Shown here piece after piece: positions 18,796-24,516 of a stretch of 64,000 nt of DNA. The first letter of the stretch is position 1. Each line of letters starts with the position of its first letter. This stretch comes from Gloeobacter violaceus PCC 7421 (GTDB lineage: Bacteria > Cyanobacteriota > Cyanobacteriia > Gloeobacterales > Gloeobacteraceae): assembly GCF_000011385.1 (NCBI RefSeq), contig NC_005125.1, positions 1,178,001-1,242,000 of the forward strand, written 5' to 3'. The notes beneath the pieces are model-generated. The model did not search any database. It was given only the letters and a program-made list of their open reading frames with translations, and had not been told where the DNA came from. The translations under genes were made by a program, and so were the position numbers.

Positions 18796-20358
<1,563 letters not shown>

Positions 20359-20376
20359 GACTTCGGATTTATTTTG

Positions 20377-20403
20377 AAAGGGATGTCATCAAGGCATCCC
20401 TTT
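20377..20403 (+). terminator. Hairpin terminator after thiC
   Basis: AAAGGGATG at 20377-20385 pairs with CATCCCTTT at 20395-20403 over a 9-base loop. It lies 19 bases after the thiC stop codon. It also lies before the converging ATPase operon on the other strand, and could serve both. Confidence 0.7.
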
Positions 20404-20489
20404 CGCTTAAGTAAAACGCACTAACTGAAAAGATCCTCCTCAGACAGCCCTGGGCTTCTGAGCCGTACTGCGCACAACCAAGAACTGCC

Positions 20490-22547
20490 CTAACGTGCAA
20501 TCATTGCCTGCTCTTCTCGAATCCGCCGAAGAACGTCTTGGCCAATCTCATTAATTTCTTGAGCGAACAAAGGTTGTTCATTCAAATGCATTCGCAAGCC
20601 TGCTTCCAAAGGTTGGAGTACTTCACGAACATTAGATTCAACTATCAGTTCCAACACCTCGCGAGTGTAACCTGCAGCAGCAGCGGTTACGACGAATTTG
20701 CTTACTGCTTGTAGAACATCTCTGTCAGAAGCAACCCTGGTTATGAGTGAGCTTAACAAGCCTAGCCCATGGACCCATTTATTTCGCATGCAAAAGATAT
20801 CGGCCATGCCGTACACTACTTCCCACCTGTCTTCCAACTTAGAATGTTCAATCGCATTATCGTATGCGAGTTCTGATTCTTGCATACGAAGCTGCCTTTC
20901 AAGCAAATCACCAAGTTCGAACCAAGCAACTGCACTGTAAGGATTGAGCTCTATTGACGTTCTAAGTGATTTTTCTGCTTGAGCGTAGCGTTTGGATTTA
21001 ACCATTATTCTGCCAAGCACAATCCATGCTATATGATTTGCTGGCTCTAGTTGAATTGCTCTTCTACACAACTGTTCTGCTTCCTCACTATCTCCGCGTA
21101 AAACTAAAAGGAGCGATAGAGCGAGCATCGCAGTAAAGTTTTCAGGCTCGTTTTGAATGATTTGCTTTAGCATAATTTCCATAACTTTGATTTTTTCGTC
21201 ATAGAGTTCTTTGCGTATGTTCTCAGGAAAGACCGAATTACTAGTGAAGTCAGATGGAGTAGATATTATGAGCTTTGCTCTTATCATTGGGTTGCTCGTC
21301 AGCTTTATTATTTCTTGATAAGCCCAGTAATGATACTGGCGATCTTCTGGATCAAGCTTGCAAGCTTCTTCAGCGAGTTTAACCACGGTGGTTACTAAAG
21401 ATTCATCTTTGTAGAATTGGATCATGAAATCAACCACTGCCCGAACACGCCTAGATGGATGACTCTGCTGTCGCATTAAATAATAAATATTGAATAGCCT
21501 TTCTGCAGCTTGGTAAAGCTTTTTATGACCCGATTCACGGTTTACCGTAACTGCACCACGGTTTACAAGGCGTCCGAGTAATGCGCTGACGGTACTTGTG
21601 TTCATTCGAGCGGCTTTTGCAATCTCACTAGCATTGGCAGGATCCCATTGTTCTAGAAGGGCAACGAACACCTTGCGCTCGCTAGGTGCCAGAGAATCGA
21701 GTTGACTTTTGAAATAAGGTGTGTAGTTATCGATTAATTGGGCAAGGTTGCTCATCAGCTCTTTGAAGGAAAGATGTTTTGCGAAGCCTGCTAAAATGCT
21801 CAAGAGACGAGGGCTTCCACCGGTCAAAATCTGAAGTGGTCTGATGTGCTCAATCGAGATATTTTCACCTGTTATTACTATCCAAAGCATCTGACATTCT
21901 TGAGTGTTTAAGGGCTCCAGTTTGTAGATTACGAAAAACTCAAACCAGGCTCTTCCAATATTCTTTATTGCTTCGAACTGTTGTGTTGCTGTGCCAAGTA
22001 ACATTAGGCGGTTTTCAGTCTGCATCGTATGACGCAGATCCCAATCATCGCCTGCCTTTAGTTGCTCACCCAGGAGCATATTGAGGTTTTCAACTATAAG
22101 TACAAGGCGCTTTCTCTGTTCATCGGCAAAGTCCATAAGCTGGGTAAGTGCGCGATCTCGAAGCCGCTTGTTGTCCATTTCACTTTTTAAGTCCTCGTAA
22201 GCCTGTTGCCAACGCTGCTCCTGAGTTTGCTCGCCCACGTAGAATAAAGCTTCAAGCCAAAATTCACCGGGACTCGTTACTCTGTAAGACTCCTCAGCAA
22301 AGACAATTGGATACCAGTGAGAACTGAGATCTGGATTGCTTCTGATCTCGGAGGCAACTCTACGCACCAGCATTGTTTTTCCAGAACCACGCGGACCAAC
22401 AATAAGAATATTTTGATTCGATGAATTTATATTGTCATGAAGTGTCTCTTTTATAAGGGTGAGAATGTGAGTGCGGATGACAAAATAACGATTGAGCTCC
22501 TCGTCATCAACGAATCCTGGATTGTATCTTAAAGGTTGTTTAACCAT
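20490..22547 (-). CDS. P-loop ATPase with winged helix and TPR repeats (second gene of a two-ATPase operon)
   Basis: The 685-residue protein has three parts. Residues 1-300 form an AAA/STAND-like ATPase with Walker A VGPRGSGKTMLVRR (about 51-64) and a Walker-B-like hydrophobic strand RLVLIVENLNMLL. Residues about 300-365 look like a MarR-like winged helix (NASEIAKAARMNTSTVSALLGRLVNRGAVT). The remainder is helical, with TPR units such as AMLALSLLLVLRGDSEEAEQLCRRAIQLEPANHIAW and LRTSIELNPYSAVAWFELGDLLERQ. It starts 3 bases after the stop of the partner ATPase, so the two are translationally linked. Composition is much more AT-rich than adjacent gnd/thiC, implying transfer. Biological role is unknown; a sensor or defence role is a guess. 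Confidence 0.7.
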   Translation of the reverse strand: MVKQPLRYNPGFVDDEELNRYFVIRTHILTLIKETLHDNINSSNQNILIVGPRGSGKTMLVRRVASEIRSNPDLSSHWYPIVFAEESYRVTSPGEFWLEALFYVGEQTQEQRWQQAYEDLKSEMDNKRLRDRALTQLMDFADEQRKRLVLIVENLNMLLGEQLKAGDDWDLRHTMQTENRLMLLGTATQQFEAIKNIGRAWFEFFVIYKLEPLNTQECQMLWIVITGENISIEHIRPLQILTGGSPRLLSILAGFAKHLSFKELMSNLAQLIDNYTPYFKSQLDSLAPSERKVFVALLEQWDPANASEIAKAARMNTSTVSALLGRLVNRGAVTVNRESGHKKLYQAAERLFNIYYLMRQQSHPSRRVRAVVDFMIQFYKDESLVTTVVKLAEEACKLDPEDRQYHYWAYQEIIKLTSNPMIRAKLIISTPSDFTSNSVFPENIRKELYDEKIKVMEIMLKQIIQNEPENFTAMLALSLLLVLRGDSEEAEQLCRRAIQLEPANHIAWIVLGRIMVKSKRYAQAEKSLRTSIELNPYSAVAWFELGDLLERQLRMQESELAYDNAIEHSKLEDRWEVVYGMADIFCMRNKWVHGLGLLSSLITRVASDRDVLQAVSKFVVTAAAAGYTREVLELIVESNVREVLQPLEAGLRMHLNEQPLFAQEINEIGQDVLRRIREEQAMIAR

Positions 22548-22550
22548 AAT

Positions 22551-23774
22551 CTATTTTCCTCGCGCAGAAGCAGGAACAAACAGTAAACTGTATTGTGCTC
22601 GCCACCATTCCTGCACCAGTTTGGACACAAACCTGTAAGTATTTGATTGTTGGTACATGTAGCCGTCATGCTCCAGGATCAGTAAGATTTCTCGAGCAAT
22701 GACGACCGGTTGCTTGTATTCTAAACAAAACACCTGGATGGCGGCCGCAGATAATTTCCCAGTGACTGCGGCTTCTGTTAAAAATTCCAAAGCAATTGGG
22801 TGCAATTCTGGCCCCAATACCAACTTCAGACGTTCTTCCAGATGGCTGAGTTCTGCATGGCCGCGTCTTGCGAGCATCTCTCTTTCGTAAACTTCCGCAA
22901 CGAGCGTCTTAGGTATATGCGTTAAGCCCTCTCGAACGCAAACGGTACGAACCTGCTGAAAGAAAAGCTGCACATGGTAAGGTACGCACCTACCTAAGCA
23001 GTCGACAAAATACTCTAATGCATCACCATCGAAGGTGAGTGAGTATTCTTCTGCTAACGCTTCAACACAACTTTTGACAACGGTTGGTTCCCACAGTCCT
23101 ATAGAAAAAGGCGTTAGATGATTGATGGTCGCACTGAGACCTACCTGGCGCAAAATTGGTTCAAGTCCAATTGATCCTGTAACCACAAGTCTAATTTTTT
23201 CTCTGTGCTTAAGACTGTTGGCTCTCAACCATGATAGAAAAGCATCTGTTTGCCCACGACGCTCTGGTGTCATCTGATAATCGCTGCCTTTTAGCAGACG
23301 GCTTACCAAAATTGGAACTTCGTCAAGGAAAATAACCACTGGCTTGTCGGATTCTGCTAATTTATCGAAAAGTTGGTCTCCTTTGGCTTGCCAGCTGCCC
23401 TCGGTCATGCCAGTGCGCAATGTCACTTTCAATTCACTGAGTTGGAGTGAATCAATTTGACGAGCTGCATTATTCAGCACATTTGAGAATATCCCTGTTA
23501 TCTTTTCCCATAGCGAACTGTTCCGGGTCGCTGCTGCTAGTTCAGCAATTGCGTCAACGACGGAATGGGCACTCTGTAGATCTATTTGCAAGCACAAATA
23601 TCGGTCTTTTATGGTCTCGGCAGCTTGCTCCATCAAGCTGGTTTTTCCGATTCGCCTTTGCGCAATAATTAGTACATGAGCTTTTTCATCCAACAGCTGA
23701 ATTAAGCCATTCAGCTCTTTCTCACGGTTCCAAAAACGCTCACCTTTAACAGGGTTGCCTACCGTCAGCTTCAC
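22551..23774 (-). CDS. AAA-family (archaeal-ATPase-like) P-loop protein (first gene of a two-ATPase operon)
   Basis: The 407-residue protein begins with FWNREKELNGLIQLLDEKAHVLIIAQRRIGKTSLMEQA, giving a Walker A of the form QRRIGKTS at about 38-45. KPVVIFLDEVPIL is the Walker B with a DE pair, and RLVVTGSIGL is a sensor-1-like strand. This is the layout of archaeal-type MoxR/Orc-like STAND ATPases. The C-terminal third (about 260-400) is helical, with a winged-helix-like segment (KLSAAAIQVFCLEYKQPVVIAREILLILEHDGYM). It is followed by the ATPase-TPR gene after 3 bases. A 35-bp dyad lies just upstream. The gene is AT-rich compared with its surroundings. Confidence 0.75.
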   Translation of the reverse strand: MKLTVGNPVKGERFWNREKELNGLIQLLDEKAHVLIIAQRRIGKTSLMEQAAETIKDRYLCLQIDLQSAHSVVDAIAELAAATRNSSLWEKITGIFSNVLNNAARQIDSLQLSELKVTLRTGMTEGSWQAKGDQLFDKLAESDKPVVIFLDEVPILVSRLLKGSDYQMTPERRGQTDAFLSWLRANSLKHREKIRLVVTGSIGLEPILRQVGLSATINHLTPFSIGLWEPTVVKSCVEALAEEYSLTFDGDALEYFVDCLGRCVPYHVQLFFQQVRTVCVREGLTHIPKTLVAEVYEREMLARRGHAELSHLEERLKLVLGPELHPIALEFLTEAAVTGKLSAAAIQVFCLEYKQPVVIAREILLILEHDGYMYQQSNTYRFVSKLVQEWWRAQYSLLFVPASARGK

Positions 23775-23806
23775 ATCATACCTCGCTCAAATCCCGATCC
23801 GGGTTC

Positions 23807-23841
23807 TCACAACAAATTTGATGCCATCAGATCTGTTGTGA
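23807..23841. promoter_or_regulatory. 35-bp imperfect palindrome upstream of the two-ATPase operon
   Basis: The outer arms TCACAACA (23807-23814) and TGTTGTGA (23834-23841) are exact complements. The inner part is also symmetric, with only two mismatched pairs and the central base unpaired. It ends 33 bases before the ATPase start codon (23774, minus strand). It could be an operator for a dimeric regulator, or a stem in the 5' leader. Confidence 0.55.
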
Positions 23842-23978
23842 AGATAGCCTCGATCGCCTCCCACTGTCAAGGGCGAGAAGAAGCACTACTTTCCGCTTCT
23901 TGCCTTGAATTTGGAACTAGAGGATGATAAAAGCCGCTCTAGAAGGACGGGGCCTGTAGCCCATTGCCAAGGGTCAAT

Positions 23979-24068
23979 ATGAAGAACAACGATGTGCGGC
24001 GCGGTCTGGCTATCGTGGCTGCCCATCAGGAACTGCTGATTGCAAAGTGGAGGGAGATCCATGGCTGA
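23979..24068 (+). pseudogene. Fragment resembling the C-terminus of a DUF4160 protein
   Basis: A 29-codon frame (ATG 23979, TGA 24066-24068) reads RRGLAIVAAHQELLIAKWREIHG. This resembles the C-terminal helix of DUF4160 proteins (pattern LA.V..H..EL...W). DUF4160 genes normally precede DUF2442 genes, and here the frame overlaps the DUF2442 start by 8 bases (ATGGCTGA). The upstream two thirds of a DUF4160 gene are not visible. It is probably a truncated partner; a tiny leader peptide is the alternative. Confidence 0.4.
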
Positions 24069-24516
24069 ATACGACGCTTCAGCGCTTGAGCGCGCTATTG
24101 AGAGTGCGCGCGAAGCAGGACAGGCTCGCCAACTTGCGGGACCGCTCGCTGAGCGAGTCCGGTACGATGGCCGCAGCCGAACCCTCGTGATCTACCTGAA
24201 CACTGGTTATGGGGTGATGATCCCGGTGCGCTCACTCCAGGGTCTGGCTGGCGCCACCTCGCAGCAATTGCGGGAGGTGACCTTTAGCCCCTCGCGCACC
24301 GGTATACGCTTCCCGGCGCTCGATGCCGTCTTCAGCCTCGACGGACTGCTCAAGGGCATCTTCGGCACCGAGCGATGGATGCAGGATCTGCGCACCGCAG
24401 CCGCCAAGGGTGGTTCCGCCCGCAGCGCGGCCAAAATCAACGCCGCCCGCGCAAACGGCAAAAAGGGTGGCAGACCCCGCAAGCAGCAGCCACACCTGGT
24501 CGTTGCGCCTGAATAA
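24061..24516 (+). CDS. DUF2442 domain protein
   Basis: The 151-residue protein has the DUF2442 core in the middle: VRYDGRSRTLVIYLNTGYGVMIPVRSLQGLAGATSQQLREVTFSPSRTGIRFPALDAVFSLDGLLKGIFG. A basic, low-complexity tail follows (SARSAAKINAARANGKKGGRPRKQ), resembling an AT-hook-like GRPRK. DUF2442 proteins pair with DUF4160 in proposed toxin-antitoxin-like cassettes; here only a fragment of the partner is present (23979-24068). ATG 24061 is preceded by a good GGAGGGAG site. A second copy of the tail-coding DNA lies at 26256-26322. Confidence 0.8.
   Translation: MAEYDASALERAIESAREAGQARQLAGPLAERVRYDGRSRTLVIYLNTGYGVMIPVRSLQGLAGATSQQLREVTFSPSRTGIRFPALDAVFSLDGLLKGIFGTERWMQDLRTAAAKGGSARSAAKINAARANGKKGGRPRKQQPHLVVAPE

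What the first reader, a model, noticed from the sequence alone, without database searches (positions are those of the whole stretch)
20490..23841. AT-rich two-gene operon of P-loop ATPases (one with winged helix and TPRs) behind a 35-bp dyad
The first gene is a 407-aa archaeal-type ATPase and the second a 685-aa ATPase-wHTH-TPR protein, separated by 3 bases. STAND-like ATPases with TPR sensors are typical of signalling and antiphage systems. The operon is clearly foreign by composition, lies at the end of thiC, and has its own near-perfect dyad. I do not recognise it as a named system.
Basis: partly seen in the sequence, partly recalled or inferred. Interest (0 to 1): 0.65.

Follow-up and report, generated by a model that had tools for sequence, protein, structure and literature searches.

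The report
Mobile self-regulating two-ATPase switch module
Next to a vitamin gene in the cyanobacterium Gloeobacter sits a small imported two-gene unit, found as a fixed pair across many bacterial phyla, in which a sensor ATPase probably switches the unit on and off through the mirror-image DNA site in front of it; its closest cousins sit beside known anti-phage gene clusters, so it is probably an unnamed defence or stress switch.

Summary
Confirmed and extended. The operon (A, 407 aa; B, 685 aa; minus strand) and the 35-bp dyad are exactly where stated. A and B form a conserved unit: 68 of 80 B loci from many phyla have A directly upstream (median overlap 14 bp), and A and B distances correlate at r=0.92. 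In G. violaceus the unit is a 3.6-kb insertion carrying only A, B and the dyad; a congener has the site without it. B is a STAND ATPase with a TPR sensor (best structural match 6MFV). A is an SSO1545-like ATPase with intact Walker motifs. The dyad is two 14-bp palindromes of type nnnCA-N4-TGnnn. This operator is conserved in A-B promoters, usually as 16-bp tandem repeats (site in 60% vs 7% of neighbour promoters), and also lies between A-less B genes and divergent CBASS or Pycsar operons. Half-site class covaries with B's winged helix, not A's. In the window it abuts the -10 box and is unique in the genome. Best reading: a mobile, autoregulated STAND defence/stress module, with B as sensor and operator-binding switch and A as partner, probably the output. 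Defence function and A's activity are inferred. No named system matches.

The parts
22551..23774 (-). Gene A: 407-aa SSO1545/PF01637-type ATPase (Walker A QRRIGKTS, Walker B FLDE) with a C-terminal winged-helix-like end; first gene of the operon
20490..22547 (-). Gene B: 685-aa STAND-type protein: nucleotide-binding domain, winged helix (aa ~288-348), helical arm, TPR sensor, conserved C-terminal cap (P646, G/A650, E664)
23807..23841 (.). 35-bp dyad = operator; two 14-bp palindromic units 23810-23823 (CAACAAATTTGATG) and 23825-23838 (CATCAGATCTGTTG), 15 bp apart
23841..23870 (-). Sigma-70-like promoter TTGACA-18-TATCTT (10/12); its -10 box abuts the operator
   Evidence: consensus match only; about as many such matches as in shuffles of the region
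20409..23972 (.). Insertion relative to congeners: holds only B, A and the operator; right end truncates a DUF4160-type gene
20376..20404 (+). thiC terminator-like hairpin, conserved in congener G001 (left border of the insertion)

Best explanation
The operon is a mobile, self-contained two-gene STAND module that controls its own expression. B is the receptor and switch. At rest (inferred: ADP-bound, autoinhibited by its arm and TPR sensor, as shown for PH0952 and MalT) its winged helix occupies the tandem palindromic operator at the operon's promoter and keeps A-B expression low. When the TPR domain senses a cue (unknown; infection or stress inferred) B exchanges nucleotide and multimerises, which relieves repression and engages A. 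A, an active-site-intact SSO1545-like ATPase always made with B, is most likely the output or co-effector, giving an antiphage or stress response. Shown here: the unit, its mobility, the operator and its link to B. Inferred: repression, the trigger, multimerisation, A as output, defence.
For: Unit: A lies directly upstream of B in 68/80 loci; A/B distance correlation r=0.917, 0/999 permutations. Mobility: clean insertion of just this unit versus an empty site in congeners; the closest pair is acidobacterial, 47-48% identity, 100/100 support in the A tree; only 5 of 292 sampled cyanobacteria carry a strong A. B is a STAND-TPR by fold, 6MFV first. Operator: site in 48/80 A/B promoters vs 32/468 neighbour promoters; lag-16 repeat (>=13/16) 22/80 vs 1/468; also present upstream of A-less B; class covaries with B's winged helix (best block starts at aa 293) and not with A's C-terminal winged helix. 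Repressor geometry: the first operator unit starts 2 bp after the -10 box. Self-contained: exact operator units occur only here in the genome. Defence link: B sits in a 13-member clade (SH-aLRT 98) with 11 A-less B, several of them divergent from type III CBASS or Pycsar operons; Moraxella pairs near Qat/methylase genes.
Against: No experiment. No catalytic effector domain was found in A or B. Neighbours of A-B pairs are mostly ordinary genes and PADLOC enrichment is modest. The covariation is confounded by relatedness: only 3 independent contrasts, none in the wrong direction but not significant. In solved STANDs the winged helix is part of the switch, not a DNA reader. No such pair was found in phage or viral collections.
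Confidence: 0.52

Rival explanations
1. A-B is purely a two-protein controller of other genes (like CapH+CapP or CapK+CapS): A and B together regulate transcription of an adjacent or distant operon and have no output of their own.
For: A-less B genes lie divergent from CBASS/Pycsar operons with operators in between. One cyanobacterial A homologue carries an N-terminal HTH and has no B nearby. Other immune controllers are two-gene units (PMC13373217).
Against: In the window exact operator units occur only at this promoter. Genes around A-B pairs are not conserved, and orientation is mixed: upstream divergent 22 / same 41, downstream same 28 / convergent 30. The insertion carries no payload operon.
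Confidence: 0.25
2. It is a metabolic or envelope-stress STAND regulator of the MalT/IniR type, acquired horizontally.
For: Same architecture class: SSO1545-like ATPase plus helical-repeat sensor and transcription control (IniR, PMC5760070; PH0952, PMC6468293). Many family members sit among ordinary genes.
Against: No conserved metabolic neighbour; the operon's only detected operator is its own; nearest relatives accompany immune operons; B lacks the C-terminal LuxR-type HTH of MalT and IniR.
Confidence: 0.1
3. It is a replication, maintenance or transposition accessory: two Orc/Cdc6-like ATPases binding iteron-like 15-16-bp repeats to maintain or move an element.
For: Both folds resemble Orc1/Cdc6; the operator is an iteron-like tandem array; the unit is mobile.
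Against: Sites lie 15-100 bp before the start codon, typically at the promoter; in A-less loci they lie in divergent promoter regions. No replication, partition or recombinase gene accompanies the unit in the window; the insertion has only A and B.
Confidence: 0.07

Closest known systems
PH0952 (PDB 6MFV), STAND with TPR sensor, and MalT
   Same: Nucleotide-binding domain, winged helix, helical arm and TPR/helical-repeat sensor; predicted or known transcription control; top fold match of B (PMC6468293)
   Different: [quoted passage not shown] B has neither and is usually paired with A
IniR (mycobacterial iniBAC regulator)
   Same: SSO1545-like ATPase with a helical sensor, acts as a transcription regulator (PMC5760070)
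   Different: Single gene, LuxR-like C-terminal DNA-binding domain, regulates iniBAC; no partner ATPase and no tandem nnnCA-N4-TGnnn operator in the passages read
SSO1545 (2FNA) / PABY2304 (2QEN), PF01637 archaeal ATPases
   Same: Fold and core sequence of A
   Different: A is below the Pfam cut-off (28.5 vs 33.2 bits) and forms a conserved bacterial operon with B
CapW/BrxR, CapH+CapP, CapK+CapS immune-operon controllers
   Same: DNA-binding regulators beside CBASS, Pycsar and other immune operons, as A-less B genes are (PMC13373217, PMC9122588)
   Different: Different folds (WYL, protease/HTH, kinase/STAS); in the window no immune operon is adjacent
Avs / bNACHT / other STAND antiphage proteins
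   Same: STAND switch with repeat sensor (B resembles Apaf-1, CED-4 and NLR NODs)
   Different: Those carry an effector domain on the same chain (general knowledge); here none is found and a second ATPase is the partner

Membership tests
STAND NTPase superfamily (gene B) | P-loop NTPase core followed by a winged-helix domain | tested here: met
   AAA_16 and TrmB/MarR-type winged helix in order; model and fold matches to 6MFV, Apaf-1, CED-4
STAND NTPase superfamily (gene B) | C-terminal repeat sensor | tested here: met
   TPRs in aa ~440-605 plus helical cap
STAND NTPase superfamily (gene B) | Effector domain on the same chain (usual, not universal) | tested here: not met
   No extra domain at either end; it is a STAND-type protein without its own detectable effector
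STAND NTPase superfamily (gene B) | Canonical acidic pair in Walker B | tested here: not met
   Second acidic residue is Asn in 81 of 90 family members; hhhh(D/E)N
PF01637 ATPase_2 (gene A) | Pfam gathering score | tested here: not met
   28.5 bits against a 33.2 cut-off
PF01637 ATPase_2 (gene A) | Fold of SSO1545 / PABY2304 | tested here: met
   2QEN and 2FNA are the top matches by profile (4.5e-10 for 2FNA) and by structure (TMq 0.64 / 0.59)
MalT / LAL / IniR regulators | C-terminal LuxR-type HTH | tested here: not met
   No such domain; the C-terminus is a helical cap with a conserved P-A-E motif
Named antiphage systems (PADLOC, NCBIfam models) | Significant full-length match to a defence model | tested here: not met
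   Only weak partial matches: mad8 8e-6, PDC-S27 9e-6
Immune-operon controllers (Cap type) | Regulator adjacent to an immune operon with an operator between them | tested here: not met
   Not met in the window (no immune operon adjacent); met for A-less relatives such as L033, L034, L035
Immune-operon controllers (Cap type) | Induction by DNA damage or ssDNA | not testable with these tools
   needs experiment

The most novel reading that the evidence does not exclude
B represents a new type of immune switch: an NLR-like STAND receptor whose own winged helix reads tandem 15-16-bp palindromes, so that the activated oligomer assembles on, or is released from, DNA. With A it forms a stand-alone inducible immune system; without A the same receptor was recruited as the transcription switch of CBASS and Pycsar operons.
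Probability: 0.25. Interest if true: 0.85.

Novelty: new variant of a known kind. Interest (0 to 1): 0.63.

Why it matters
[quoted passage not shown] It also makes a testable prediction from sequence alone: which operator half-site each B reads, with position 318 of the recognition helix as the first residue to test.

Tried and rejected
A genome-contig scan with the A protein alone found nothing because its peptide patterns were too divergent; the B alignment succeeded. Viral contigs with B and phages with A gave no relatives; A2 was too divergent for a pattern scan. The dyad as an RNA hairpin or attenuator: the folded 5' leader is no more stable than shuffles, z -0.72. The dyad as a terminator of A-B: it lies before A, at the promoter. 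Long N-terminal extensions of A in L081 and L100 look like over-extended ORFs, not effector domains. Defence-island enrichment: only modest against 112 control proteins, 32 PADLOC families matched vs 107 and 67; generic helicases and kinases inflate all three counts. The phylogeny-corrected test of operator versus residue 318 had too few contrasts. Papers searched for a named two-ATPase STAND-TPR pair: none found in the open library.

Full report
What is there. The operon is real and exactly placed. A (22551-23774, minus strand, GTG start) is a 407-aa P-loop ATPase and B (20490-22547, minus strand) a 685-aa ATPase-winged helix-TPR protein, with three bases between them. GC drops to 0.42-0.46 against about 0.6 around it. 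The genome is one contig of 4,659,019 bases, which from memory is the size of Gloeobacter violaceus PCC 7421; the gene content of relatives fits Gloeobacterales. The dyad 23807-23841 has 17-nt arms, 15 of 17 paired. It is not matched in 60 shuffles of the region and is unique in the genome.

An inserted unit. A same-genus genome (G003) has thiC followed by a DUF4160-type gene and the DUF2442 gene. In the window the stretch 20409-23972 replaces the space between thiC and a DUF4160 remnant, and G001 matches up to 20408 (DUF2442, DUF4160 by my reading of the translated sequence). The insertion holds B, A and the dyad and nothing else. The congener G002 also has an A-B pair, but elsewhere, only 22-26% identical and with a different operator class, so the two were probably not inherited together. 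The nearest pair is in a Bryobacterales MAG (L041; A 47%, B 48%), joined to the window's A with 100/100 support in a tree that mixes phyla. Only 5 of 292 sampled genomes of the phylum have a strong A.

A and B are a unit. A scan of 84,980 species genomes with a B alignment gave 331 relatives, of which the best 80 were kept. In 68 of the 80 an A homologue lies upstream on the same strand; 61 of these overlap B or end within 28 bp of it (median -14 bp), and most of the rest look like broken ORFs. A and B distance matrices correlate at r=0.917 over 69 pairs, against a maximum of 0.134 in 999 permutations. The pair also occurs on Moraxella and Segatella plasmids, near QatD, N6-methylase or WYL/DUF262 genes. 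Genes around A-B are otherwise not conserved and lie in mixed orientations, so the unit is self-contained.

What the proteins are. The A model (pLDDT 92) matches 2QEN and 2FNA first, then Orc1/Cdc6; a profile search also finds 2FNA at 4.5e-10. Its Walker A Lys and Walker B Asp-Glu are invariant in the family. The B model (pLDDT 87) matches 6MFV first, then SAMD9, Orc/Cdc6, Apaf-1, CED-4 and NLRs. The whole-chain TM-scores of B are low because domain orientation differs, so the match is to the architecture, not to one rigid structure. B keeps Walker A, but its Walker B ends in Asp/Glu-Asn (Asn in 81 of 90), which suggests weak or altered hydrolysis (inference). The C-terminal cap has conserved P646, A/G650 and E664. 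Neither protein carries a recognisable nuclease, TIR, protease or membrane effector.

The dyad belongs to a family-wide operator. Upstream of A, many loci carry dyads at a similar distance. In 69 upstream regions lag 16 stands out alone: mean 10.9 of 16 matches against about 8-9 at all other lags from 8 to 40. The unit is nnnCA-N4-TGnnn, with half-sites CAA (including CAG/CAT), ATT, ATA and CGT in different lineages. It occurs in 48 of 80 promoters against 7.6 expected in shuffles and 32 of 468 neighbouring promoters in the same loci (Fisher p = 2e-26); lag-16 repeats of at least 13/16 occur in 22/80 against 1/468. The motif was derived from these same promoters, so the site counts are somewhat optimistic; the lag test does not depend on the motif. 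In the window the two units CAACAAATTTGATG and CATCAGATCTGTTG are 15 bp apart, L041 has the same 15-bp spacing, and exact units occur nowhere else in the 4.66-Mb genome. The best promoter-like match in the operon region, TTGACA-18-TATCTT, ends where the operator begins, which is the geometry of a repressor site; the promoter itself is a consensus match only.

The operator goes with B. Eleven B genes without A form, with the window's B and L041's, one clade of 13 (SH-aLRT 98) inside the A-B family (a quick tree without bootstrap, with L041 as a fragment). Most of them carry the same CAACA-type palindromes, often two or three times, in the intergenic region shared with a divergent operon. In L033 that operon is a type III CBASS (TRIP13, two HORMA, CD-NTase, SAVED-endonuclease) and L036 looks alike at its first gene. 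In L034 (and by length and sequence L032, L037 and the Sphingobium plasmid L021) it is a Pycsar cyclase with E1-E2, JAB and PycTIR, with a PycC-PycTM pair on the other side. L035 has a cyclase and a cNMP-TIR effector. Across 55 loci, operator class carries most information about B columns in the winged helix: the best 30-column block starts at residue 293, while in A the C-terminal winged helix is not favoured. Position 318 in the recognition helix is Thr for ATT operators (12/14), Asn or Ser for CAA (24 of 30), Ser for ATA (3/5) and Gln for CGT (4/5). Class was assigned partly by eye, and relatedness confounds this; only three independent contrasts exist, all neutral or in the expected direction. 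I treat B as operator reader as likely (about 0.8), not proven.

How it most likely works. Shown: a mobile, co-evolving, self-contained pair with an operator that travels with B. Inferred from STAND biology (PMC6468293) and from the geometry: resting B occupies the operator and limits expression; a cue at the TPR sensor opens the switch; expression rises and B engages A. A is the only other component of the unit, so it is the best candidate for the output, but its activity is unknown. Defence is favoured because the closest B relatives accompany CBASS and Pycsar operons and because the unit is patchy, horizontally spread and found on plasmids. General neighbour enrichment for defence genes is modest, so I do not put defence itself above about 0.55-0.6.

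Known or new. No PADLOC or NCBIfam model matches beyond weak P-loop similarity. The immune-operon regulators described in the papers read here (CapW/BrxR, CapH+CapP, CapK+CapS; PMC13373217, PMC9122588) are of other folds. IniR (PMC5760070) and PH0952 (PMC6468293) are the nearest functional precedents, and each has a separate DNA-binding domain that B lacks. The paper library is open-access only, so an existing name in a subscription journal or preprint cannot be excluded.

Noticed in passing
L034 3098-7917 (-) and 11154-12492 (-); similar in L032, L037, L021: A Pycsar cyclase operon that also carries CBASS-type E1-E2 and JAB genes plus a PycTIR effector, with a second PycC-PycTM pair on the other side of the B gene. 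A Pycsar with ubiquitin-like conjugation genes looks unusual.
   Followed up: partly
L019 7292-11805 (-) (Agrobacterium plasmid; same in L020): cNMP-binding/cyclase fusion, second cyclase and an E2-E1 (ThiF) gene in one operon divergent from an A-less B gene with operator copies between them.
   Followed up: partly
L031 4938-7781 (-): Three-gene operon (metallo-beta-lactamase-fold protein plus two proteins without Pfam matches) divergent from an A-less B gene with the same operator: a candidate unnamed defence operon.
   Followed up: partly
L144 3749-5167 (-) (same gene as L115): Cyanobacterial A homologue with an N-terminal Cro/C1-type HTH and no B next to it: A may have acquired its own DNA-binding domain.
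   Followed up: partly
window 23973-24060 (+): Remnant of a DUF4160-type gene truncated by the insertion; the DUF2442 partner gene (24061-24516) is intact. A congener (G003) keeps the intact DUF4160-DUF2442 pair.
   Followed up: yes
window 18873-18979 (+): TPP riboswitch aptamer in front of thiC; the mechanical thiC ORF start (18859) is therefore too early.
   Followed up: no
L145 8355-9833 (+): A homologue in a distant relative of the same phylum with a ~110-aa N-terminal extension of no known family, followed by a B-like gene.
   Followed up: partly
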